From assembly GCA_018606805.1 (NCBI GenBank), contig JAGYWI010000016.1:1-64000 (forward strand): a stretch of 64,000 nucleotides of DNA, in the 5' to 3' direction. The position numbers and the translations under genes are program-made. Source of the stretch: Candidatus Magnetomicrobium cryptolimnococcus. Its GTDB lineage: Bacteria > Nitrospirota > Thermodesulfovibrionia > Thermodesulfovibrionales > Magnetobacteriaceae. Positions 14,029-49,177 of this stretch are shown piece by piece. Below the pieces are notes generated by a model that saw only the letters and a program-made list of their open reading frames with translations, searched no databases and was not told where the DNA came from. The stretch's first letter is position 1. Each line of letters starts with the position of its first letter.

Positions 14029-14691
14029 ATGGAAAACGCTAAAGGGCAATATCTGAAAGATAGAGAGTTGATGGTTAGAAACCAAATAGCTGCGCGTGGG
14101 GTTAGGGATTCCAATGTGCTCAATGCTATGCTTAACGTACCGCGCCATGTGTTTGTTGGTAAGGAAAACCTATCTTGGGCATACGCAGACTCTGCTCTGC
14201 CTATTGGTAACGGACAGACCATTTCTCAACCCTATATGGTTGCTGTAATGACCGAATTGCTTGAGCTTAATAAAAACGACCGTGTCCTTGAAATAGGTAC
14301 GGGTTCCGGTTATCAGGCGTGTGTTTTAGCCGAGATAGCCTTTGAGGTGTATACGGTAGAACGAATAGTAGAGCTGCAACGAAGGGCGGTAGAGAAGTTT
14401 GATGAGCTTGGATATAGAAATATTTATTCAATAGTTGCTGATGGTACTATCGGGTGGCAGGAAAAGGCACCTTTTAATAAGATAATCATAACGGCAGGGT
14501 GTCCGGATATTCCACAAGGGCTAATAGAGCAGCTTGCTGATGGTGTGGGGATTATAGTGGCTCCTGTTGGTTCAAAGTTTACGCAACAGTTGCTGAAATT
14601 GACAAAACGCAAAGGGGGACTAACTAAAGGGTTTTCGGTTTCCTGCGTCTTTGTTCCATTAATAGGCAAATACGGATGGAGTGATTTGTAA
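14029..14691 (+). CDS. pcm: Protein-L-isoaspartate O-methyltransferase
   Basis: A 220-residue SAM methyltransferase that starts repair of isoaspartyl residues in aged proteins. The SAM motif LEIGTGSGYQACVLAEIA is at about 86-103, preceded by the family signature QTISQPYMVAVMTELL. The N-terminal VPRHVFVG is also conserved. Its stop overlaps the start of the AmrS gene in TAATG, so translation is probably coupled. Confidence 0.96.
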   Translation: MENAKGQYLKDRELMVRNQIAARGVRDSNVLNAMLNVPRHVFVGKENLSWAYADSALPIGNGQTISQPYMVAVMTELLELNKNDRVLEIGTGSGYQACVLAEIAFEVYTVERIVELQRRAVEKFDELGYRNIYSIVADGTIGWQEKAPFNKIIITAGCPDIPQGLIEQLADGVGIIVAPVGSKFTQQLLKLTKRKGGLTKGFSVSCVFVPLIGKYGWSDL

Positions 14692-15701
14692 TGAAAGAGG
14701 CTATTTTATATGAGAAGTTAGATAAACAGCAGGTACGATGTTCGTTGTGTGCCCACCGTTGTACCATTAATAATGGGCGACGAGGGCTTTGTGGTGTTAG
14801 AGAAAATAGAGCAGGTACTCTTTACAGCCTTGTTTATGGCAAGATTTGTTCAACTGCTATTGACCCAATAGAGAAAAAACCACTTTTTCACTTTCTGCCT
14901 GGTTCTAAATCACTTTCAATAGCTACGGTTGGATGCAATTTTAAATGTCTACACTGCCAAAATGCCTCCATTTCCCAGTATCCGAAGGAACACATGGGAG
15001 GCATAATAGGTACGGACATAACACCTGAGCAGGTGGTTGATGCTGCCCAGCGGGAAGGTTGTGAGAGTATTTCTTATACATATACTGAACCCACTATTTA
15101 TATGGAATTTGCACTTGATTGTGCTACCCTTGCGCGTGAGCGCGGTATTAAAAACGTCTTTGTAAGTAATGGGTTTATGACTATGGAAAGTGCCGCAGTT
15201 ATAGTGCCCTACCTTGATGGTAATAATATAGATTTAAAAGGGGATGACAAGTTTTATAAGGAAATCTGTGGTGCGAGGCTTCAACCAGTAGAGGAAACTA
15301 TTAAGCTGATGATGGAAAAAGGCGTTTGGATTGAAATTACCACCTTACTAATACCCGGACTGAATGATTCTAACGTTATACTAAAAGACATTGCTACATT
15401 TATAAGAGCACTAGATCAGGCGATTCCATGGCATGTTACAGCGTTTTATCCAACGTATAAGCTTAATGATAGAATGGAGACACCCAAGGAAAGCCTCGAA
15501 CGTGCTAGGAAGATAGGGTTTGAAGTAGGGCTTAAATACGTGTATGGGGGGAACATGTATGTTGATGGCTGGGAGAATACGTATTGTCCGCGCTGTAAAA
15601 GCCTATTAGTTGAAAGACACGGATTTAGCGTAAAAAAGAATGTGTTAAGCAATAGCCATTGTCCCTATTGTGAGGCTTTTATTGAGGGGATTTGGGTTTA
15701 A
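14691..15701 (+). CDS. amrS: AmmeMemoRadiSam system radical SAM enzyme
   Basis: A 336-residue radical SAM protein of the AmrS family. The N-terminus has a zinc-finger-like set (CSLCAHRC ... GLCGVREN), then GKICSTAIDPIEKKPLFHF and the cluster motif CNFKCLHC (C82, C86, C89). A second Cys-rich module, CPRCKSLLVERHGF ... CPYCEAF, closes the protein. In the named system it works with AMMECR1- and MEMO1-like proteins; neither gene is in this window. The reaction is not established. Confidence 0.92.
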   Translation: MKEAILYEKLDKQQVRCSLCAHRCTINNGRRGLCGVRENRAGTLYSLVYGKICSTAIDPIEKKPLFHFLPGSKSLSIATVGCNFKCLHCQNASISQYPKEHMGGIIGTDITPEQVVDAAQREGCESISYTYTEPTIYMEFALDCATLARERGIKNVFVSNGFMTMESAAVIVPYLDGNNIDLKGDDKFYKEICGARLQPVEETIKLMMEKGVWIEITTLLIPGLNDSNVILKDIATFIRALDQAIPWHVTAFYPTYKLNDRMETPKESLERARKIGFEVGLKYVYGGNMYVDGWENTYCPRCKSLLVERHGFSVKKNVLSNSHCPYCEAFIEGIWV

Positions 15702-17006: not shown

Positions 17007-18977
17007 TTAATCATCAATAGAATTAATGGCATTTATTATATCTTCCACAGAGTATGGTTTTTGTACAATTGCCTTATATATAATAGGGCAATTATTATCA
17101 TTTATAATATTTTTTGTATAACCGCTTGCTATTATAATTTGAACTAATGGGTCTATTTTATTAAGATATTTGATTGTATCTATACCATTCATGCCATTTT
17201 GTATTGTCAAATCGAGTATGACAATATCGAAAGGATTATTTAAACGCAGGGCTTCATTATATAGTTGTATGGTTTCATTGCCTTCACTTGTGGTGGTTAT
17301 GTCATATCCGTGGGATTTCATAAGTTCGCCGATACTGTCACGTATGTCGTCATCGTCATCCATAAAGAGTATTTTGGGGGTGATTTTGGTATTTTGTGTG
17401 TGTTGTTTTACCTTTGGCTGGTCATTGGGTAGGGGTTGTAGTGCTGGCAGGTAGATATAAAACGTGGTGCCTTCGCCAGGCTTTGATTCAGCGCTTAGGT
17501 GGCCGTCGTGTTTTTGTACAATTGAGTATGATGTAGCAAGGCCTAAGCCTGTCCCTTCCTTTTTAGTTGTAAAAAAAGGTGTAAACAGGTTATTAAGGCA
17601 TTCTTCATCCATTCCTATACCATTGTCTTTTATTGAGATTTTTAAATATTTACCTGGGCTTAGAGGAATGGTGTTATTATCGTTAATGATAAAATTTTCA
17701 GCATTTATAATTACTATGCCATTTTCGCCTATAGCTACTTTAGCATTTAATAAAATGTTATTTATTACTTGATTAATATAGTTGGCATCTATGTTACACA
17801 TCCACATGTTGTCTGGTGTACTGATTGTGTATTGAACGGTTGAGCCACCAAGTATAAAGTCTGTTGTTGTTTTTAGTAAAGAGTTCATATCTGTTGGTGC
17901 CTTTTTTAAAGCCATACCTTCTTTAGATAGTGTGAGCAAATGTTTTGATAGCTCTTTGGCATCTTGTATAACTGCCAATGCCTCGTTTAAACGTTCAATG
18001 GCAACGTAGGCATCTTTAAGTATGTATAGACGTGCAAGTGATATTTTCCCAATAAAAGCGGTTAGTATGTTATTTATATCATGAGCAATGCCACCGGATA
18101 GAAGGCCAATGGCTTCATATTTTTGGATTTTCATCATGTGTTTTTCCAGTTTTTGGCGTTCTTCTTCCTTTTTATGCAAGGTATTAACCATATCGTTAAA
18201 TGCCTGAGATACTTTACCTATTTCATCAGATGTTTTAATTGGTAGTTTATTGACAGTGCCTTTTTCAGCAAATACCCTTAGTTGTTCACGTAAGGTTGTC
18301 AGTGGTTCTGTGATTTGTTTTATCGAAAAATATATTACTATAATTGCCAATAGGATAAAGATTATAAATAAAATGAGGTTTTTGTGCATCAGTTCCTTTT
18401 TGCCTATTTGCAGGGCACACGTTGAAATTGTAATGCGTGCAAAACCGAGTAAGGTTTTTTTGTCGGCATCCACCGTAGCTGATGGTGTTAATTTGTCATC
18501 AATGGCAAATATATTTATATTATATATTGGTGCAAGTAGTTCTATAAAGCCGTCTTCTTTTTTAACTACGATTGGATTGATTTCATTAATTATGCTTTTA
18601 TCTATTGTTATTTGTTCACTGTTTGCACTATTGTGGTGAATGTACCCATTTCTTTGTTTTTTGTTAGTTTGCAGGAGTTTTCCAGTTTTATCAAATACAT
18701 CCACAGAGATTACATCTTTTTCCTGCATAATACTTTGTGCTGCATTTTCTAATAATATCTTATTTTCGGAAAACAGTCCTATTCGTGAATTGTATGCAAG
18801 GAGTCTTATGAGTGTATGGCCGTTTCTTATTAATTCACCCTCTATCTGCTCATTTCCAATTTCTATTGAATTATATGTAAATAGGGTGAACATTAAGAAT
18901 ATACACATAATGGATATTGTTAAGACCTTTACATGAAAATAATTTTGAAAACACTTTTGAATTTTGAGCATTTTCAA
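17007..18977 (-). CDS. Hybrid sensor histidine kinase with C-terminal receiver
   Basis: A 656-residue membrane kinase. Helix 1 is at about 18-36, an extracytoplasmic sensor region runs to about 198, helix 2 is at 200-219, then HAMP, the phospho-acceptor H299 in GGIAHDINN, the N box NNILLNAKVA, the G boxes DNGIGMD and GTGLGLA, and a receiver (ILFMDDDDD ... VILDLTIQNG) from about 535. It begins eight bases after the stop of a periplasmic substrate-binding protein gene on the same strand, so that protein probably presents a ligand to the sensor region. Input unknown. Confidence 0.92.
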   Translation of the reverse strand: MKMLKIQKCFQNYFHVKVLTISIMCIFLMFTLFTYNSIEIGNEQIEGELIRNGHTLIRLLAYNSRIGLFSENKILLENAAQSIMQEKDVISVDVFDKTGKLLQTNKKQRNGYIHHNSANSEQITIDKSIINEINPIVVKKEDGFIELLAPIYNINIFAIDDKLTPSATVDADKKTLLGFARITISTCALQIGKKELMHKNLILFIIFILLAIIVIYFSIKQITEPLTTLREQLRVFAEKGTVNKLPIKTSDEIGKVSQAFNDMVNTLHKKEEERQKLEKHMMKIQKYEAIGLLSGGIAHDINNILTAFIGKISLARLYILKDAYVAIERLNEALAVIQDAKELSKHLLTLSKEGMALKKAPTDMNSLLKTTTDFILGGSTVQYTISTPDNMWMCNIDANYINQVINNILLNAKVAIGENGIVIINAENFIINDNNTIPLSPGKYLKISIKDNGIGMDEECLNNLFTPFFTTKKEGTGLGLATSYSIVQKHDGHLSAESKPGEGTTFYIYLPALQPLPNDQPKVKQHTQNTKITPKILFMDDDDDIRDSIGELMKSHGYDITTTSEGNETIQLYNEALRLNNPFDIVILDLTIQNGMNGIDTIKYLNKIDPLVQIIIASGYTKNIINDNNCPIIYKAIVQKPYSVEDIINAINSIDD

Positions 18978-18985
18978 TCTTCAAA

Positions 18986-19912
18986 TTATTGGAGATTAGC
19001 AAGATGGAATTTTACAGTTTGCACATTTTTATATTTTTCATTAAGTGTTAACTGCATATTCATAACAACTGCTTGATTTATAGAGATTTTAGCAGTCATT
19101 GCCTCTTGTTCTTTTATTAAAACAGGTTTATTTTGGTTTTTAAAAAGTAATGTAGCCATTTGTCCTGTTTGTTTTCCCATATCGTATGGGTCTATATTTA
19201 GTGAAATAGAGGCGCCTAGTTGCGTTTGATTTTCAGAAAACGTTAATATTGGTATATTATTTTCCATGGAAAACAGTATTAGATATTCGGTGGTCTCCGG
19301 TGTGACTATTTTTGTATTTGGTAGTATCCATAGGGCATCTATTTTGTTTTTAATGTCTGTTAAAATAGCTGGTATGCTTTGTGGTTTATCTACAAGGCGC
19401 TCGTTTAGGGCTACGCCGTGTTTTTGAGTTGCATTTTTAATGCTTGGGAGGATTTCTCTTTCTTCGTCAGAGGTGTATAAAACGCCTATTGTTTTAACTT
19501 GTGGTAAAACATCAAGGAATACTGTTAGTTGTTTGTTTGCTGGTATGTGCATGCTTATTCCACTTATGTTATTCTTATTTTCTACTATACTATAAGGGTG
19601 TAGTACCATTGTGTACAATATTGGTATATCTTTAATATTGGAAACTTCTTTAAGGGCTTTTTCGCCTACTGCTACTATCAGTTCTGGTCTTGCCTCGTAT
19701 ATTTTCCTTGTGGTGTAAATATCTAATATATCAATAGAAAGTACTTCTTTTATTGTACAGGCACATGTCTTTTGAAATCCTGCGATAGCTTTCTCGTATG
19801 GTTCATATGATTTACCTTCGACTATAACTACATCATTTGCAAATATTATGTTTGTGTACGTTAGTAGTGTTAGAAGAGATATTATAAATATTTTATGAAG
19901 TTTTTTTTTCAT
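18986..19912 (-). CDS. ABC-type substrate-binding protein (ABC_sub_bind family), orphan
   Basis: A 308-residue exported protein with an N-terminal signal peptide (KIFIISLLTLLTYTNIIFA). The fold is the periplasmic binding type of pfam04392, with landmark stretches LIVAVGEKALKEV, IPILYTMVLHP, KTIGVLYTSDEE and DALWILPNTKIV. No ABC permease or ATPase gene is near. The pairing with a membrane kinase downstream and a divergent TonB receptor suggests a sensory rather than transport role. Confidence 0.88.
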   Translation of the reverse strand: MKKKLHKIFIISLLTLLTYTNIIFANDVVIVEGKSYEPYEKAIAGFQKTCACTIKEVLSIDILDIYTTRKIYEARPELIVAVGEKALKEVSNIKDIPILYTMVLHPYSIVENKNNISGISMHIPANKQLTVFLDVLPQVKTIGVLYTSDEEREILPSIKNATQKHGVALNERLVDKPQSIPAILTDIKNKIDALWILPNTKIVTPETTEYLILFSMENNIPILTFSENQTQLGASISLNIDPYDMGKQTGQMATLLFKNQNKPVLIKEQEAMTAKISINQAVVMNMQLTLNEKYKNVQTVKFHLANLQ

Positions 19913-20036
19913 AATCTACTTACACCTTCATCGTTATAAAAAAAGATTTCAATTCCCTACTTCTAATAATATCTTATCATAAATAAATATTTTTTATCTA
20001 TAAAAAAAATTTTACTAAATCCTTACACAAAATTTA

Positions 20037-20065
20037 TTGAAAAGTCCACAGGAATTTCGTATAAT
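20037..20065 (+). promoter_or_regulatory. Strong sigma-70-like promoter for the TonB receptor
   Basis: TTGAAA (20037-20042), 17-base spacer, TATAAT (20060-20065), ending 24 bases before the ATG at 20090. The intergenic region also has to drive the divergent binding-protein gene. Confidence 0.65.
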
Positions 20066-20089
20066 ACATTAAAAATATTTAATCTAAAG

Positions 20090-21961
20090 ATGGTAAGTCA
20101 TTTAAAAATATACATATTTTGTTTTATACTTTTTAGTCTTTTGGCTGAAACAGGGAAGGCATTTGCCGACGATGATGAGGAGAAGGTGCTATCTATGATG
20201 TTTGGAGAAGATGCCTTAGTTGTAACTCCTACGAGATATTTAAAGCCGCTTTCGCAGGTACCGGAAAATATTGTGGTTGTAACTGCTAAGGAAATAGAGG
20301 AGATGAATGCCCATACGCTTGCTGAGGTGTTAAATATGGTTACCGGTTTGCAAGTAGATGTAAGGCTTGTTTATGGTAATTATTCGTCTGTGAAGGTACA
20401 AGGGGCTGATTTTAGGCATGTGAAGGTGGCTATTGATGGTGTTACGATAAATGACCTTGGTAACAATTTTGCAAGGATTGGCGATATACCTGTCCAGTAT
20501 ATTGAGCGGATAGAGATAATAAAAGGGCCAGCTTCATCGGCGTGGGGTTCTGCCTTAAGTGGTGTTATTAATGTTATAACTAAGTCTGTTGATTATTCGG
20601 TGAAGGCTGGTGGTATGCTTTCGGTGTCGTACGGGGAGCAAGATTCCGGTGATTACAGGGGTGAGGCCTCTGGTAAGGTAGGAAATGTGGGCTATTATTT
20701 GTATGGTGGAAAACTGACAAGTGGTGGGTTTTACCGAAATACAAAACTTGATGCCAGAAATTTTTTTGCAAAGGCAGAGGTAGACATATCTGATAGGACT
20801 AATTTAATGTTGGAATTAGGACTGGTTGATACAAAGCGTGGGGCAGGGCATGATGAAAGTTATGATATTTATATAAATAATGATTATAGAAATGTTTTAT
20901 CAAAACTGACTCTTAAGTCATCAATACGTAAAGATATTGATCTTAATTTAAGTATACGGTACCTCAGACAAGACCAAGACGATACGTATGCCATGGGGGA
21001 TGACAGTAATTTATTAAATCAAACGGATATGATTGATAAGGGATATGGCACTACTGGTACTTTGGCTTGGAAGGGGGAGGGGCATACGTTGGTTGTAGGT
21101 GGTGAGTTTGATGATATGGAGCTTGAATCGGGAGTCTTGAGCAGTGGTAAGGAAAAACTTGAAAAATGGGCTCTTTTTACTAATGACTCTATTGTCTTTG
21201 GCAGGTTTTCAGTATCCCCAGGCTTTAGATACGACCATACAAGTACTAATGGGACATTTTATAGTCCGAGTATTGGTCTTACGTATATGATTGCCAAGGA
21301 TTATAATGTAAAATTATTTGTTACAAGGGGATTTACAATTCCCTCTTTGATTGATACCTATGGTGTTGGTGTTTATTATCTTCCAAATCCCGACCTTGAA
21401 GTGGAAAAGGCATGGTCCTATCAGGTTGGTCTTGAAACTAAGACATTAAAATATGTCTGGGTTGGTTTATATTTCTTTAGACATGATGTTACTGATTCTG
21501 TTTGGTCTACGTATGTTCCTGAACAGGGCAAGTATTATACTTCTAATAACTATGATTTACGCTATCAAGGTTTTGAAGTAGAGTTTCAGACTACCCCTAT
21601 CTATAATTTTTTGTTAAAGGGCGGTTATGCCTTTGTTGATGCAAAAAATCTTTCCACAGGTACTGATGTAAGTGGTATTGGCCATCATTCCTGTAATGTA
21701 AATCTTGAATATAAGAAAAATAGATTTACCTCTGTTTTAAATGCACATTATATTAAATGGAGAGATATTTATGAAATATACAATCCTTCAAGTAGCATGA
21801 TTTTTAATATTAATTCCAATATAAGACTTATTAAGAAAGGCAGGTTTGTAATGAACACCTTTTTTTCGGTTCATAATCTGTTTAACAGTGCACAATATTA
21901 CAGTGAAACTTATAAAAATGAGGATAGGTGGGTAGAAGGTGGTATAAAGATATTTTATTAA
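20090..21961 (+). CDS. TonB-dependent outer-membrane receptor
   Basis: A 623-residue receptor. A signal peptide (IYIFCFILFSLLAETGKAFA) is followed by a TonB-box-like VVTPTR, the plug domain (about 40-165, with VPENIVVVTAKEIEEMNAHTL and IERIEIIKGPASSAWGSALSGVINVIT) and a beta barrel ending in an aromatic-rich C-terminus with terminal FY. It takes up a metal chelate, vitamin or similar compound using TonB energy. It is divergent from the binding-protein/kinase pair, which may regulate it. Its last four bases overlap the 3' end of a convergent HicB gene. Substrate unknown. Confidence 0.93.
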   Translation: MVSHLKIYIFCFILFSLLAETGKAFADDDEEKVLSMMFGEDALVVTPTRYLKPLSQVPENIVVVTAKEIEEMNAHTLAEVLNMVTGLQVDVRLVYGNYSSVKVQGADFRHVKVAIDGVTINDLGNNFARIGDIPVQYIERIEIIKGPASSAWGSALSGVINVITKSVDYSVKAGGMLSVSYGEQDSGDYRGEASGKVGNVGYYLYGGKLTSGGFYRNTKLDARNFFAKAEVDISDRTNLMLELGLVDTKRGAGHDESYDIYINNDYRNVLSKLTLKSSIRKDIDLNLSIRYLRQDQDDTYAMGDDSNLLNQTDMIDKGYGTTGTLAWKGEGHTLVVGGEFDDMELESGVLSSGKEKLEKWALFTNDSIVFGRFSVSPGFRYDHTSTNGTFYSPSIGLTYMIAKDYNVKLFVTRGFTIPSLIDTYGVGVYYLPNPDLEVEKAWSYQVGLETKTLKYVWVGLYFFRHDVTDSVWSTYVPEQGKYYTSNNYDLRYQGFEVEFQTTPIYNFLLKGGYAFVDAKNLSTGTDVSGIGHHSCNVNLEYKKNRFTSVLNAHYIKWRDIYEIYNPSSSMIFNINSNIRLIKKGRFVMNTFFSVHNLFNSAQYYSETYKNEDRWVEGGIKIFY

Positions 21962-22323
21962 TCTTTAGATACTGAAATCCCAAGATTTTTAGATAATAAA
22001 TATATACAAAGTTGGTTTAAGCTTACACCTTCAGCCTTAGCCTTCTCGACCAGTTGCTTATGTAGGGATTTGGGTGTCCTTATATAAACCGTTCCACTAT
22101 ATTTGTTGTCTTTATTAATATTAAACTCAATAGGAGATGGCTCTGGAATTTTTGTGCCTTCCTTACGGGCTGTTTCAATCCATAATTCTTTTACAATGTT
22201 TATTTCTCTAATAGCATTTTCTTGTGTTTTACCGAAAGCAGAAGTTCCAGGCAAGTCCGGTATTATGGCTATAAAGCCATCATCTTGTATGCTATAAAAT
22301 AGCTTAATAGGGTAGTATGTCAT
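21958..22323 (-). CDS. HicB-like antitoxin, orphan
   Basis: A 121-residue protein with the two HicB parts: the partial RNase H-like fold (QDDGFIAIIPDLPGTSAFGKTQENAI) and a C-terminal ribbon-helix-helix-type DNA-binding end (VYIRTPKSLHKQLVEKAKAEGVSLNQ). No hicA lies beside it in either direction, so it may be a solitary regulator or what is left of a pair. Confidence 0.82.
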   Translation of the reverse strand: MTYYPIKLFYSIQDDGFIAIIPDLPGTSAFGKTQENAIREINIVKELWIETARKEGTKIPEPSPIEFNINKDNKYSGTVYIRTPKSLHKQLVEKAKAEGVSLNQLCIYLLSKNLGISVSKD

Positions 22324-22485: not shown

Positions 22486-23769
22486 CTAAATACCGTACAT
22501 AATATCCTGTCTAATTAAATCTTCAAGTACTTTTCCATAAAAAAGTTTTCTACAATCTATTTTTGAATTATTTGATTTTGATATAGACATTGCCTTACAC
22601 CCTCCATAGCATAACGGTAGATATTTACAACTTTTACACTCTGCGTTATATTTCCAATTTCTTAATTGGAAATCATGGGAATGGGTTTTTATTCCTTCAA
22701 ATACATTTCCAATACTGTAATCCTTTAGTAGGGGACATTTATATATAGTTCCTTCTGGTGAAATAAAGAAAAAATTATCTAACTCTACTCCACAAAAACT
22801 TGGGGCTATAATTGGATGAGTTTTAATTGTTCGTTTAAGCAATTCATCTCTTAGTTCAACAGTAGGTTTGTATAACCATTCCTCATCAGTAGTTTTACAA
22901 CCATAGCCACAGCCTTGATCAAGTCTTGGAAAAAAGTTGTAATCCACTATTTTTTGGGCTATTCCTTTATCATACAGAATATCAAAATATTCTGTTGAAT
23001 AACTTAACATATAATCTTCTTTTGCAAAAGTGCTGTTTATTACTATTTCCATTAATTCATGTTTACATATATAAGCAATATTATCTATAACAATATTAAA
23101 ACTACCGGCCTTGTTTTTAAAAAATCGCACCTGATCGTGCAAAAGTCCATCAACCGATATTACTGCTTTTTTAATACCTGCCTTTACAAGCTTTTCGACG
23201 TTATGTGGTGTTAAAAGCGTACCATTTGTTTGTATAGACATTACGAAATCAACATCTTTGGATATATCCTGTATCTTTTGGGCAAGCGTTATTAGGGCTT
23301 TAATGTTAATTAGAGGTTCACCGCCGTAAAAAATTATGCGAACAGTATTACAGTTATTAATAATACTGGAACGTATAAAGTTAATTATGCCTTTGATGGA
23401 GTTTTCACTTATATGATTTAGGTTGTCTTTTATTGTAAAGAAGCAGTGGGGACAGCTCAAGTTACATTTTTCTGTTAGGGAAATTGCTATTAGGGCTTCT
23501 TTATTTTCTATCTTCATGTTATCAACAAGATCAATTACTGATTGTCTTTCATTTTCTATGTCTTCGACTAAAAATCCCATTTCGACAAGCAATTCTTTTT
23601 CATCATTTTCAAAAAATGCTTCTATTTTATTGTCTTTATTATCATCTTGCGCATCAATCTTATCAATGTGTATAACGTTTCCATTTTTTAATGAATACAG
23701 ATATATCCCTTCATCATTTTGAGCGCTGAGCTTAATGGTATATGACGATAATTTTAGTATATTACACAT
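22486..23769 (-). CDS. Radical SAM/SPASM peptide-maturase-like enzyme
   Basis: A 427-residue radical SAM protein. Residues 1-95 form an N-terminal domain with EMGFLVED before the core, as in RiPP maturases with a leader-binding region. The SAM cluster motif is CNLSCPHC (C102, C106, C109), followed by IIFYGGEPL and MSIQTNGTLL. The C-terminal SPASM domain (about 330-415) has the full Cys set for auxiliary clusters, including CKSCKYLPLCYGGC and a final IDCRK. The shape resembles the geopeptide-type maturases. Upstream on the same strand is a 29-codon gene for a Cys-rich peptide. The ATG has no clear Shine-Dalgarno. The modification made is unknown; thioether or other Cys-linked chemistry is an inference. 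Confidence 0.88.
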   Translation of the reverse strand: MCNILKLSSYTIKLSAQNDEGIYLYSLKNGNVIHIDKIDAQDDNKDNKIEAFFENDEKELLVEMGFLVEDIENERQSVIDLVDNMKIENKEALIAISLTEKCNLSCPHCFFTIKDNLNHISENSIKGIINFIRSSIINNCNTVRIIFYGGEPLINIKALITLAQKIQDISKDVDFVMSIQTNGTLLTPHNVEKLVKAGIKKAVISVDGLLHDQVRFFKNKAGSFNIVIDNIAYICKHELMEIVINSTFAKEDYMLSYSTEYFDILYDKGIAQKIVDYNFFPRLDQGCGYGCKTTDEEWLYKPTVELRDELLKRTIKTHPIIAPSFCGVELDNFFFISPEGTIYKCPLLKDYSIGNVFEGIKTHSHDFQLRNWKYNAECKSCKYLPLCYGGCKAMSISKSNNSKIDCRKLFYGKVLEDLIRQDIMYGI

Positions 23770-23839
23770 AAATTCATATGTTTTTAAAAATAACTAAGAT
23801 TATTTAAAGCTATCCTCATTTAAGATGACCATAATACTT

Positions 23840-23926
23840 TACTTCCCCTCTTGCTAAACATAAATCCTTACTTGGTTCTTAAAATGACAATACTTAAAAT
23901 AAGCACTGCTTAGTAGAAGGGAAGTA
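23840..23926. promoter_or_regulatory. Imperfect inverted repeat between peptide and maturase genes
   Basis: TACTTCCCCTCTTGCTAA (23840-23857) pairs with TTAGTAGAAGGGAAGTA (23910-23926) with few mismatches. A transcript from the peptide gene into the maturase gene would fold here, so it may adjust the ratio of peptide to enzyme. A tiny palindrome TAAGCA-C-TGCTTA overlaps its right arm. Confidence 0.45.
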
Positions 23927-23945
23927 AATATTAAACTCTCTGCGT

Positions 23946-23951
23946 ATTATA
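23946..23951 (-). promoter_or_regulatory. Possible -10 box of the maturase gene
   Basis: On the minus strand TATAAT is preceded by TTTAGC about 16 bases upstream, a weak -35 match. It would give the maturase its own promoter in addition to read-through from the peptide gene. Confidence 0.35.
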
Positions 23952-23996
23952 CAAAAAACATTCTCGTGCTAAACTAATGCCAAAATTTGTTTTCAA

Positions 23997-24086
23997 TTAA
24001 GCGTACTGATATATGGGACCAACTTTACAGCATGAACATGTTGGTTTTAATCCAGCAGTTTTTCTAACAATTGTAATTCTCTTCAT
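23997..24086 (-). CDS. Cys-rich 29-residue peptide, candidate RiPP precursor
   Basis: A 30-codon frame including stop that is too short for usual gene callers. It starts MKRITIVRK, continues TAGLKP, has the core TCSCCKVGP (Cys 17, 19 and 20) and ends IYQYA. An ideal Shine-Dalgarno GGAGG lies five bases before the ATG, the best in its neighbourhood. The basic leader-like half followed by a small Cys/Gly/Pro core, and its place just upstream of a radical SAM/SPASM gene on the same strand, suggest a ribosomally made and modified peptide. No transporter or protease gene is adjacent. No homology can be claimed from sequence reading alone. Confidence 0.68.
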   Translation of the reverse strand: MKRITIVRKTAGLKPTCSCCKVGPIYQYA

Positions 24087-24116
24087 CAACGCCTCCAAAC
24101 ATTAGTTATATTTCAA

Positions 24117-24129
24117 GGAACAATGTCCC
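24117..24129. promoter_or_regulatory. Palindromic operator-like site upstream of the peptide gene
   Basis: GGAACAATGTCCC is a palindrome with one mismatch centred about 37 bases ahead of the peptide ATG. It overlaps the expected promoter zone and could bind a dimeric regulator. The remaining sequence to 24408 is AT-rich without a recognisable gene. Confidence 0.35.
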
Positions 24130-24408
24130 ACTTTTAATCATAAAGAGCCTCTAAAATGAAAAACAGCCTTATTTATAAAACCATAGATACGATATTTTTT
24201 TCAAGTTTAAAATTCCTGTAAAATTAAAAATATTTAATGTTAAACCTATAAGTCATTAATTTTATTAAATAATATATTTTAAATACATTACTTCTATTTT
24301 GGTTTAGTGCATTGGGGTATATGTGTTAGTGGTATTTCTGTAAAGATATGGGATAAAAATGATAGCTACTGCAAAATGGTGTTATGTTTGATTGAAAACT
24401 AATGTATA

Positions 24409-25044
24409 TTAAAAATTATCAGTTGCTTCCGATGGGTGTTTATTATCAAGTAGCATATTTATAGCTTTAGATATTTCTGTATAGCCCCAGCCTACGTCTT
24501 CGGCAGCCCCGAGTATTTCATCAACCTTGATAAGGACTCCGTCTGTTAGATTTTTAGTGTCTCCTTCGGCTATTTTTTTAAGAGACTCCTCATCTATTGT
24601 TTTAAACAAATTGTAAATATAGGTTATATTGTGTTTTGAAAAGGCATGTAAAGATTTTAGTGCCTCAAGTATGCTACCTATGTTTTGTTTGATTTCATTG
24701 TCAAGGATAATTTCCGACCAACTGTCAAGTCGTTCGAGTCTTTTTAAATAGGATTCCCACACTACGTGGTCCCAATTGCCATTATTTTTTTTTATAAATT
24801 TAACGCTATTTATGACAACGTCAGATATGGCACTATTTACTTCATTCATATGATTTAAAGAGACATAAAGAACCTTTAGTGATTCAAGTAAAAGCCCAAG
24901 ATACCTTTTCTCGCTATTTGATATGTAGCCAGTTCTTTGCTGTATCTCCTTCAAAAAAATCAACCACTCTACATGTTCCCATTGGCCAGATTTACTACGT
25001 ATAAACTCCGCTGCCATTTCGGAAAGAGCATCAAATTTACCCAT
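24409..25044 (-). CDS. Hypothetical protein with internal duplication
   Basis: Not recognised. The 211-residue product is mostly helical and soluble. Residues about 9-65 and 74-135 are diverged copies of one unit: a helix, then SGQWEHVEWLIFLKEI or NGNWDHVVWESYLKRL, and later LLLESLKVLY or SILEALKSLH. The C-terminal 60 residues differ and are acidic. It lies between the candidate peptide system and a kinase on the other strand; no functional link is shown. Confidence 0.6.
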   Translation of the reverse strand: MGKFDALSEMAAEFIRSKSGQWEHVEWLIFLKEIQQRTGYISNSEKRYLGLLLESLKVLYVSLNHMNEVNSAISDVVINSVKFIKKNNGNWDHVVWESYLKRLERLDSWSEIILDNEIKQNIGSILEALKSLHAFSKHNITYIYNLFKTIDEESLKKIAEGDTKNLTDGVLIKVDEILGAAEDVGWGYTEISKAINMLLDNKHPSEATDNF

Positions 25045-29599: not shown

Positions 29600-29688
29600 G
29601 AAGTTTTAGGAAGTGCGTAGGCGCACTCCCGTAAGGGGTGTGGGAGTGCGCCTGCGCACCTTTTCTCGAAAAGGGTTTTCCCCCACGC
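29600..29688. repeat. GC-rich hairpin repeat, copy 3
   Basis: Full copy in the orientation of copy 1: AAGTTTTAGGAAGTGCGTAG at the left, a hairpin arm GTGCGTAGGCGCAC, a second arm GTGCGCCTGCGCAC, and AAGGGTTTTCCCCC at the right. The hydrophobic N-terminal extension of the next frame comes from this repeat and the T-rich tract after it. Confidence 0.85.
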
Positions 29689-49082: not shown

Positions 49083-49177
49083 GCGGGGGAAAACCCTTTT
49101 AGGCAAAAGGTGCGTAGGCGCACTCCCAAACCCCGCACCCCTTACGGGAGTGCGCCTACGCACTTCCTAAAACTTCT
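49083..49177. repeat. GC-rich hairpin repeat, copy 6
   Basis: GCGGGGGAAAACCCTTTTAG, two arms GTGCGTAGGCGCAC and GTGCGCCTACGCAC, and ACTTCCTAAAACTTCTGG. It lies between convergent genes after a purine-rich run (49020-49079). The rest up to 49313 shows no gene. Confidence 0.85.

What the first reader, a model, noticed from the sequence alone, without database searches (positions are those of the whole stretch)
22486..24130. Candidate radical SAM-modified peptide (RiPP) system with an unannotated precursor
A 29-residue open frame (23997-24086, minus) lies upstream of a radical SAM/SPASM enzyme on the same strand. Seen: an ideal GGAGG five bases before its ATG, a basic front half, a Cys-X-Cys-Cys core with Gly and Pro, a near-palindromic operator-like site ahead, and an inverted repeat between the two genes. 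Known: SPASM radical SAM enzymes often mature small Cys-rich peptides and their precursor genes are usually missed. Inferred: the peptide is the substrate and this is a new or poorly described precursor type. No exporter or protease is adjacent, so the product could stay inside or use a distant one.
Basis: partly seen in the sequence, partly recalled or inferred. Interest (0 to 1): 0.86.

Follow-up and report, generated by a model that had tools for sequence, protein, structure and literature searches.

The report
Divergent geopeptide locus with uptake module
A tiny unannotated gene makes a cysteine-rich peptide that the neighbouring radical enzyme very probably modifies, and in dozens of distantly related bacteria this pair sits beside an outer-membrane uptake receptor, a periplasmic binding protein and a sensor kinase, which suggests a peptide-derived molecule that is exported, recaptured and sensed.

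Summary
In detail: a 29-aa frame with GGAGG five bases before its ATG and a CSCC core (23997-24086, minus), 227 nt ahead of a radical SAM/SPASM enzyme (22486-23769). It is the only Shine-Dalgarno-led 20-60 aa frame with Cys-Cys in the 64 kb. It is a gene: two homologues in a related genome share ITI-RK..CC..GPI with mostly different synonymous codons, and 30 of 31 maturases in the same clade have a short [I/V]xV..G..CC precursor close by. The type is not new. The enzyme is a deep, divergent sister of NCBIfam's "geopeptide radical SAM maturase" (TIGR04280; 261 bits, cut-off 400), and the precursor escapes the geopeptide model (TIGR04229).

A TonB-dependent receptor, an ABC_sub_bind periplasmic protein and a histidine kinase (all within 17007-21961) lie near 27, 27 and 24 of 32 geopeptide-type maturases, against 0, 0 and 1 of 60 other SPASM enzymes. 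The receptors form one clade, and the receptor nearest the window's sits beside the most similar peptide.

Best reading: an RRE-guided SPASM enzyme modifies the Cys core, and the product is recaptured by the receptor and sensed. The chemistry, the export route and any bound metal are inferred.

The parts
23997..24086 (-). precursor peptide gene, 29 aa MKRITIVRKTAGLKPTCSCCKVGPIYQYA: basic beta-prone leader plus CSCC-KVGP core
   Evidence: the only SD+CC short frame in the window; homologues in G149; codon pattern; alignment shuffles 0 of 10000
24092..24096 (-). Shine-Dalgarno GGAGG, 5 nt from the ATG
   Evidence: G149 homologues also have AGGAGG
24117..24129 (-). near-palindrome GGGACATTGTTCC ahead of the peptide gene; operator role unproven
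   Evidence: not supported as an RNA fold
23833..23933 (-). strong stem (arms 23838-23851 / 23915-23928) between precursor and maturase; could hold down maturase expression or protect the precursor mRNA
   Evidence: (z -5.7); no Rfam family above gathering score
22486..23769 (-). radical SAM/SPASM peptide maturase, geopeptide-maturase type, with N-terminal RRE-like domain
   Evidence: TIGR04280 261 bits; SPASM cysteines invariant; AF2 pLDDT 87, best PDB match CteB 5wgg/5why; tree
20090..21961 (+). TonB-dependent receptor (plug plus barrel), geopeptide-linked clade
   Evidence: Pfam; neighbour in 27 of 32 geopeptide loci vs 0 of 60 controls; tree
18986..19912 (-). ABC_sub_bind periplasmic binding protein with signal peptide, probable ligand-presenting protein
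   Evidence: Pfam PF04392; 27 of 32 vs 0 of 60
17007..18977 (-). hybrid histidine kinase (sCache_4-HAMP-HATPase-REC), 8 nt after the binding-protein gene
   Evidence: Pfam; 24 of 32 vs 1 of 60

Best explanation
This is a divergent geopeptide-type RiPP locus coupled to an outer-membrane uptake and sensing module. The 29-aa precursor is translated, and its N-terminal basic strand (KRITIVRK) is bound by the RRE-like N-terminal domain of the SPASM radical SAM enzyme. The enzyme then oxidatively modifies the CSCC core, most likely through a Cys thioether cross-link or another Cys-centred change. The product, whole or trimmed, leaves the cytoplasm by a transporter not encoded in the window. It, or its complex with a scarce ligand such as a metal, is recaptured by the TonB-dependent receptor and bound in the periplasm by the ABC_sub_bind protein, which reports to the adjacent histidine kinase. 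Shown by computation: the precursor is coding and conserved with the maturase; the enzyme clade and fold; the conserved receptor/binding-protein/kinase neighbourhood; agreement of receptor and peptide relationships in the one case testable. Inferred: leader binding, bond chemistry, export, ligand, direction of transport, signalling.
For: A precursor with adjacent CC was found at 30 of 31 clade maturases. Close homologues MRKITIIRKQAADPKACCPAGPIFEIQ and MKKISIIRHAAGSQSDCCFAGPI... were found in G149, with 8 of 12 and 9 of 12 identical residues using different codons. Alignment shuffles reached the score in 0 of 10000. Maturase tree: one clade (100/97), with the window plus L024 as deep sister. 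Fold: RRE-like beta-beta-beta-helix start, best match the leader-binding thioether maturase CteB. Neighbours within 6 kb: TBDR 27/32, SBP 27/32, HK 24/32; in 60 other SPASM loci 0, 0 and 1. The own genome has only one other match to this TonB receptor at E<=1e-10. Linked TBDRs form one clade separate from other receptors of the same order, and the window receptor's nearest relative (47%) is the G149 receptor beside the nearest peptide.
Against: The window peptide scores only ~9 bits against a profile of the other precursors (second of 1904 frames; 25 of 5000 shuffles as good) and is missed by TIGR04229. The receptor/binding-protein pair also occurs without a nearby maturase in several relatives, so the module is not strictly tied to the peptide. 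G149 has peptides but no maturase was found (79% complete). L196 has a maturase but neither the module nor a precursor nearby. No exporter or peptidase is linked in the window. No chemistry was tested.
Confidence: 0.6

Rival explanations
1. The modified peptide is the source of a small redox cofactor, as PqqA is for PQQ: only a few core residues survive, the cofactor serves a periplasmic enzyme, and the TonB receptor scavenges it, as PqqU does PQQ.
For: SPASM maturase with an RRE-like domain and short precursor; the receptor profile matches the PQQ transporter structure 9c4o, though BtuB and CirA score higher; PqqU imports PQQ in E. coli (PMC12124388); some relatives carry the receptor pair without a maturase, as scavengers would.
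Against: No conserved peptidase or cofactor-dependent oxidoreductase was seen among the shared neighbour clusters; the sequence right after CC varies widely.
Confidence: 0.2
2. The peptide is an intracellular or periplasmic regulator or metal handler that is modified but not recaptured; the receptor module imports an unrelated nutrient and is merely co-regulated.
For: The receptor/binding-protein pair exists without a maturase; no exporter in the window.
Against: Tight linkage across phyla, receptor directly upstream of the peptide in most loci, and agreement of nearest receptor and nearest peptide.
Confidence: 0.12
3. The product is an antimicrobial peptide, with the receptor as target or immunity factor.
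For: Many radical SAM RiPPs are antimicrobial (general knowledge); TonB receptors are common entry points for such peptides; an ABC-transporter ATPase lies beside the G149 peptide.
Against: The partners are a binding protein and kinase rather than immunity and export genes; the CC core is kept across phyla, unlike fast-evolving bacteriocins.
Confidence: 0.05
4. The 29-aa frame is a chance frame and the maturase acts on something else.
For: Weak profile score; not matched by TIGR04229.
Against: Homologues with synonymous divergence, Shine-Dalgarno and CC uniqueness, same position as precursors elsewhere.
Confidence: 0.03

Closest known systems
Geopeptide (TIGR04229) / geopeptide radical SAM maturase (TIGR04280), NCBIfam
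   Same: Best family hit of the enzyme over its whole length; same precursor layout (I/V-rich strand, G, spacer, CC); same receptor/binding-protein/kinase neighbourhood; one maturase clade.
   Different: Both curated cut-offs are missed (261 vs 400 bits; peptide not detected); core is CSCC-KVGP rather than the commoner xCC-xG; deep sister branch with L024.
CteB/CteA thioether (SCIFF ranthipeptide) system, PDB 5wgg/5why
   Same: Closest solved fold, including an N-terminal leader-binding domain.
   Different: About 20% identity; NCBIfam SCIFF maturase score only 69 vs cut-off 425; precursor is shorter and lacks the six spaced cysteines (general knowledge of SCIFF).
Methanobactin (MbnA/MbnBC/MbnT)
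   Same: About 30-aa precursor with a basic leader and Cys-rich end, plus a TonB-dependent transporter that re-imports the product (PMC3621798, PMC9601215).
   Different: Maturation there is by MbnB/MbnC, here by a SPASM radical SAM enzyme; a metal ligand is not shown here; sensing there is proposed via an ECF sigma factor, here a binding protein plus histidine kinase.
PQQ biosynthesis and uptake (PqqA/PqqD/PqqE, PqqU)
   Same: SPASM radical SAM enzyme with RRE acting on a short peptide (general knowledge), and TonB-dependent import of the product (PMC12124388).
   Different: No Glu-Tyr core in the peptide; no PqqB/C/F homologues were identified nearby; receptor scores only 50 bits on the PqqU model (cut-off 1200).

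Membership tests
TIGR04280 geopeptide radical SAM maturase | score at or above the curated cut-off of 400 bits | tested here: not met
   261 bits, full-length match
TIGR04280 geopeptide radical SAM maturase | phylogenetic placement with members over the cut-off | tested here: met
   one side of a 100/97 branch with all others, as deep sister pair with L024
TIGR04280 geopeptide radical SAM maturase | CxxxCxxC plus seven-Cys SPASM domain | tested here: met
   invariant columns
TIGR04229 geopeptide | score at or above 30 bits on the 22-position model | tested here: not met
   no match; some clade precursors match only below cut-off, e.g. L009 23.3 bits
TIGR04229 geopeptide | short precursor with vicinal CC near a geopeptide maturase | tested here: met
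RRE-dependent RiPP maturases | N-terminal RRE (winged-helix, PqqD-like) domain | tested here: inconclusive
   predicted three strands then helices and fold match to CteB; no Pfam RRE hit for residues 1-96
Sactipeptide/ranthipeptide | Cys thioether cross-link in the product | not testable with these tools
   needs mass spectrometry or NMR
Methanobactin | MbnB/MbnC maturation enzymes | not tested
   MbnB/C models were not searched; the adjacent enzyme is a SPASM radical SAM protein

The most novel reading that the evidence does not exclude
Geopeptides are a widespread class of radical-SAM-made, cysteine-cored metallophores or signal ligands of anaerobic and metal-cycling bacteria (Nitrospirota, Desulfobacterota/Myxococcota, perhaps Omnitrophota), recaptured by a dedicated TonB receptor and read by a periplasmic binding protein-histidine kinase pair. 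No metallophore of this biosynthetic origin is known to me.
Probability: 0.35. Interest if true: 0.85.

Novelty: new variant of a known kind. Interest (0 to 1): 0.66.

Why it matters
The geopeptide family exists only as models in NCBIfam; no paper mentioning it or its model numbers was found in the searched library (subscription journals are mostly not held). Tying it to a TonB receptor, a periplasmic binding protein and a histidine kinase across phyla gives it a testable function: an exported and recaptured modified peptide. It would add a radical-SAM route to the few RiPPs with dedicated outer-membrane uptake (methanobactin, PQQ) and points to how metal-cycling anaerobes may capture a scarce ligand. 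The window also shows that curated models miss a whole branch of the family.

Tried and rejected
A profile of 25 other precursors did not recover the window peptide significantly; support comes instead from nearer homologues, codon pattern and position. TIGR04229 in the own genome gave only one sub-cut-off match elsewhere (E 0.22, with a stop), and the model also rings below cut-off in 11 of 14 control genomes, so that match is chance. An RNA hairpin role for the upstream palindrome is not supported. Rfam gave nothing above gathering score. A conserved CxC in the binding protein is present in most Nitrospirota members, linked or not, and absent in most Desulfobacterota ones, so it is not a geopeptide signature. 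Viral contigs gave only distant SPASM relatives (best 24%) and plasmids likewise (22-28%). The six-frame neighbour clustering produced antisense noise in GC-rich genomes, so final counts were redone with profile searches and a control set. A dN/dS ratio could not be computed for window pairs because synonymous sites are saturated. The idea that the receptor module is exclusive to geopeptide loci was rejected.

Full report
OBSERVATION. The 29-codon frame, its GGAGG, the near-palindrome, the intergenic inverted repeat and the downstream radical SAM/SPASM gene are all present as described. In the whole window it is the only frame of 20-60 aa that combines a Shine-Dalgarno site and vicinal cysteines, and Markov shuffles of the intergenic stretch give such a minus-strand frame in 5 of 2000 cases.

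THE ENZYME. Its best family is TIGR04280, geopeptide radical SAM maturase, matched end to end with 261 bits against a curated cut-off of 400; the next family scores 134. Radical SAM and SPASM cysteines are invariant across the 19-sequence alignment. AlphaFold2 gives pLDDT 87 with a three-strand, multi-helix N-terminus before the barrel; the best solved folds are CteB, then anSME, TigE, SuiB and ChlB. No Pfam RRE model matches the N-terminus, so the RRE call rests on fold. In a tree with other SPASM enzymes, 31 geopeptide-type maturases form one side of a 100/97 branch; the window and L024 are a deep sister pair. Of ten scanned, seven pass 400 bits; the window, L024 and the Auribacterota one (L048, outside the clade) do not.

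THE PRECURSOR. Homologous maturases in other genomes of the phylum and in Desulfobacterota/Myxococcota have a short frame nearby, e.g. MKRITVLDKGAKKEEMTMACCKSGPTRG (L009), MKNRIVVLKKGVEKKQIVEGLCCIGAYVPYLWG (L008), MEKKKLIVLAKGTDPKEIAVRAACCKVGPRRFKAW (L035). In all, 30 of 31 clade maturases have one with adjacent Cys-Cys; in L027 (seen in L197) and L035 it lies beside the receptor rather than beside the maturase. L011 is the exception. The curated geopeptide model TIGR04229 picks up some of these below cut-off and misses the window's. Against a profile made without it, the window peptide scores weakly (second of 1904 window frames; 25 of 5000 shuffles as good). Clear homologues were then found in G149, another genus of the same family: MRKITIIRKQAADPKACCPAGPIFEIQ and MKKISIIRHAAGSQSDCCFAGPIIIMGMDCCLSGVLYTF, each with AGGAGG. 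Between the window and these, 12 of 27 aligned residues are identical, and 8 and 9 of those 12 use different codons; third-position changes dominate and synonymous sites are saturated. No shuffle of the peptide in 10000 aligns as well to either one or to L009.

THE PARTNERS. Comparing neighbourhoods showed a repeated module: a TonB-dependent receptor, an ABC_sub_bind periplasmic protein and a histidine kinase. In the window these are 20090-21961, 18986-19912 and 17007-18977, separated from the maturase only by a HicB-like gene. Within 6 kb of the maturase the receptor is found at 27, the binding protein at 27 and the kinase at 24 of 32 loci (several misses are at contig ends), compared with 0, 0 and 1 of 60 other SPASM loci fetched by the same search. 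The same loci were partly used to build the receptor and binding-protein profiles, so the counts describe this family of receptors, not all receptors. The three Omnitrophota/Auribacterota loci have a receptor but no such binding protein. In most loci the receptor gene directly precedes the peptide on the same strand.

RECEPTOR PHYLOGENY. Linked receptors fall in one clade separate from other TonB receptors of the same order. The clade also contains receptors with no maturase nearby, chiefly in the window's own family. The window receptor's closest relative (47% identity) is the one in G149 that sits beside the peptide most like the window's. Relatives with receptor plus binding protein but no detected maturase show that the uptake module can stand alone, as expected of scavengers or of a broader use.

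MECHANISM. Most likely the leader is held by the enzyme's RRE-like domain, the CSCC core is modified, the product is released and then recaptured by the receptor, and the periplasmic protein reports to the kinase. The first link (peptide is substrate) is strongly supported; recapture and sensing are inferred from gene linkage; bond chemistry and metal binding are open. The intergenic stem (z -5.7) could set the precursor:enzyme ratio. The layout resembles methanobactin, whose ~30-aa precursors have a basic leader and Cys-rich end and whose product returns through a TonB transporter (PMC3621798; PMC9601215), and PQQ with PqqU (PMC12124388).

VERDICT. A real, previously unannotated precursor gene; a divergent branch of a known but, in the searched literature, uncharacterised family; and a link of that family, tested against a control set, to an outer-membrane uptake and sensing module.

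Noticed in passing
L276 9253-9336 (minus) and L300 near 9668 (plus): Genome G149 carries two window-type peptides with no maturase found in the (79% complete) assembly; one lies between a TonB receptor and an ABC-transporter ATPase, the other, with two CC motifs, stands alone.
   Followed up: partly
L004, L005, L010, L023, L032 upstream of the maturase: Some precursors have greatly expanded Lys/Ala repeats (KKKATKKKA...) ahead of the CC core, a histone-H1-like leader.
   Followed up: no
L028 / L206, 7560-7890: Two tandem, nearly identical precursor genes precede one maturase.
   Followed up: no
window 21958-22323 (minus): HicB-like antitoxin-type gene between receptor and maturase; no HicA partner was recognised among the adjacent ORFs.
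   Followed up: partly
window 24409-25044 (minus): 211-aa ORF upstream of the peptide gene with no Pfam or NCBIfam match.
   Followed up: partly
window 29613-29659 and 49110-49163: The same 18-nt inverted repeat GTGCGTAGGCGCACTCCC / GGGAGTGCGCCTACGCAC occurs at two distant places, a possible repeat element.
   Followed up: no
window 14691-15701 (plus): AmmeMemoRadiSam-type radical SAM enzyme (334.7 bits, over its cut-off); no evidence that it belongs to the peptide system.
   Followed up: no
binding proteins in alignment A4, window 18986-19912: A CxC motif just after the mature N-terminus is conserved in most Nitrospirota ABC_sub_bind proteins of this kind, with or without a maturase nearby, but not in most Desulfobacterota ones.
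   Followed up: partly
L195, L196, L206, directly 3' of the maturase: A ~190-aa half-size MFS-like membrane protein follows the maturase in three loci and could be an exporter.
   Followed up: no
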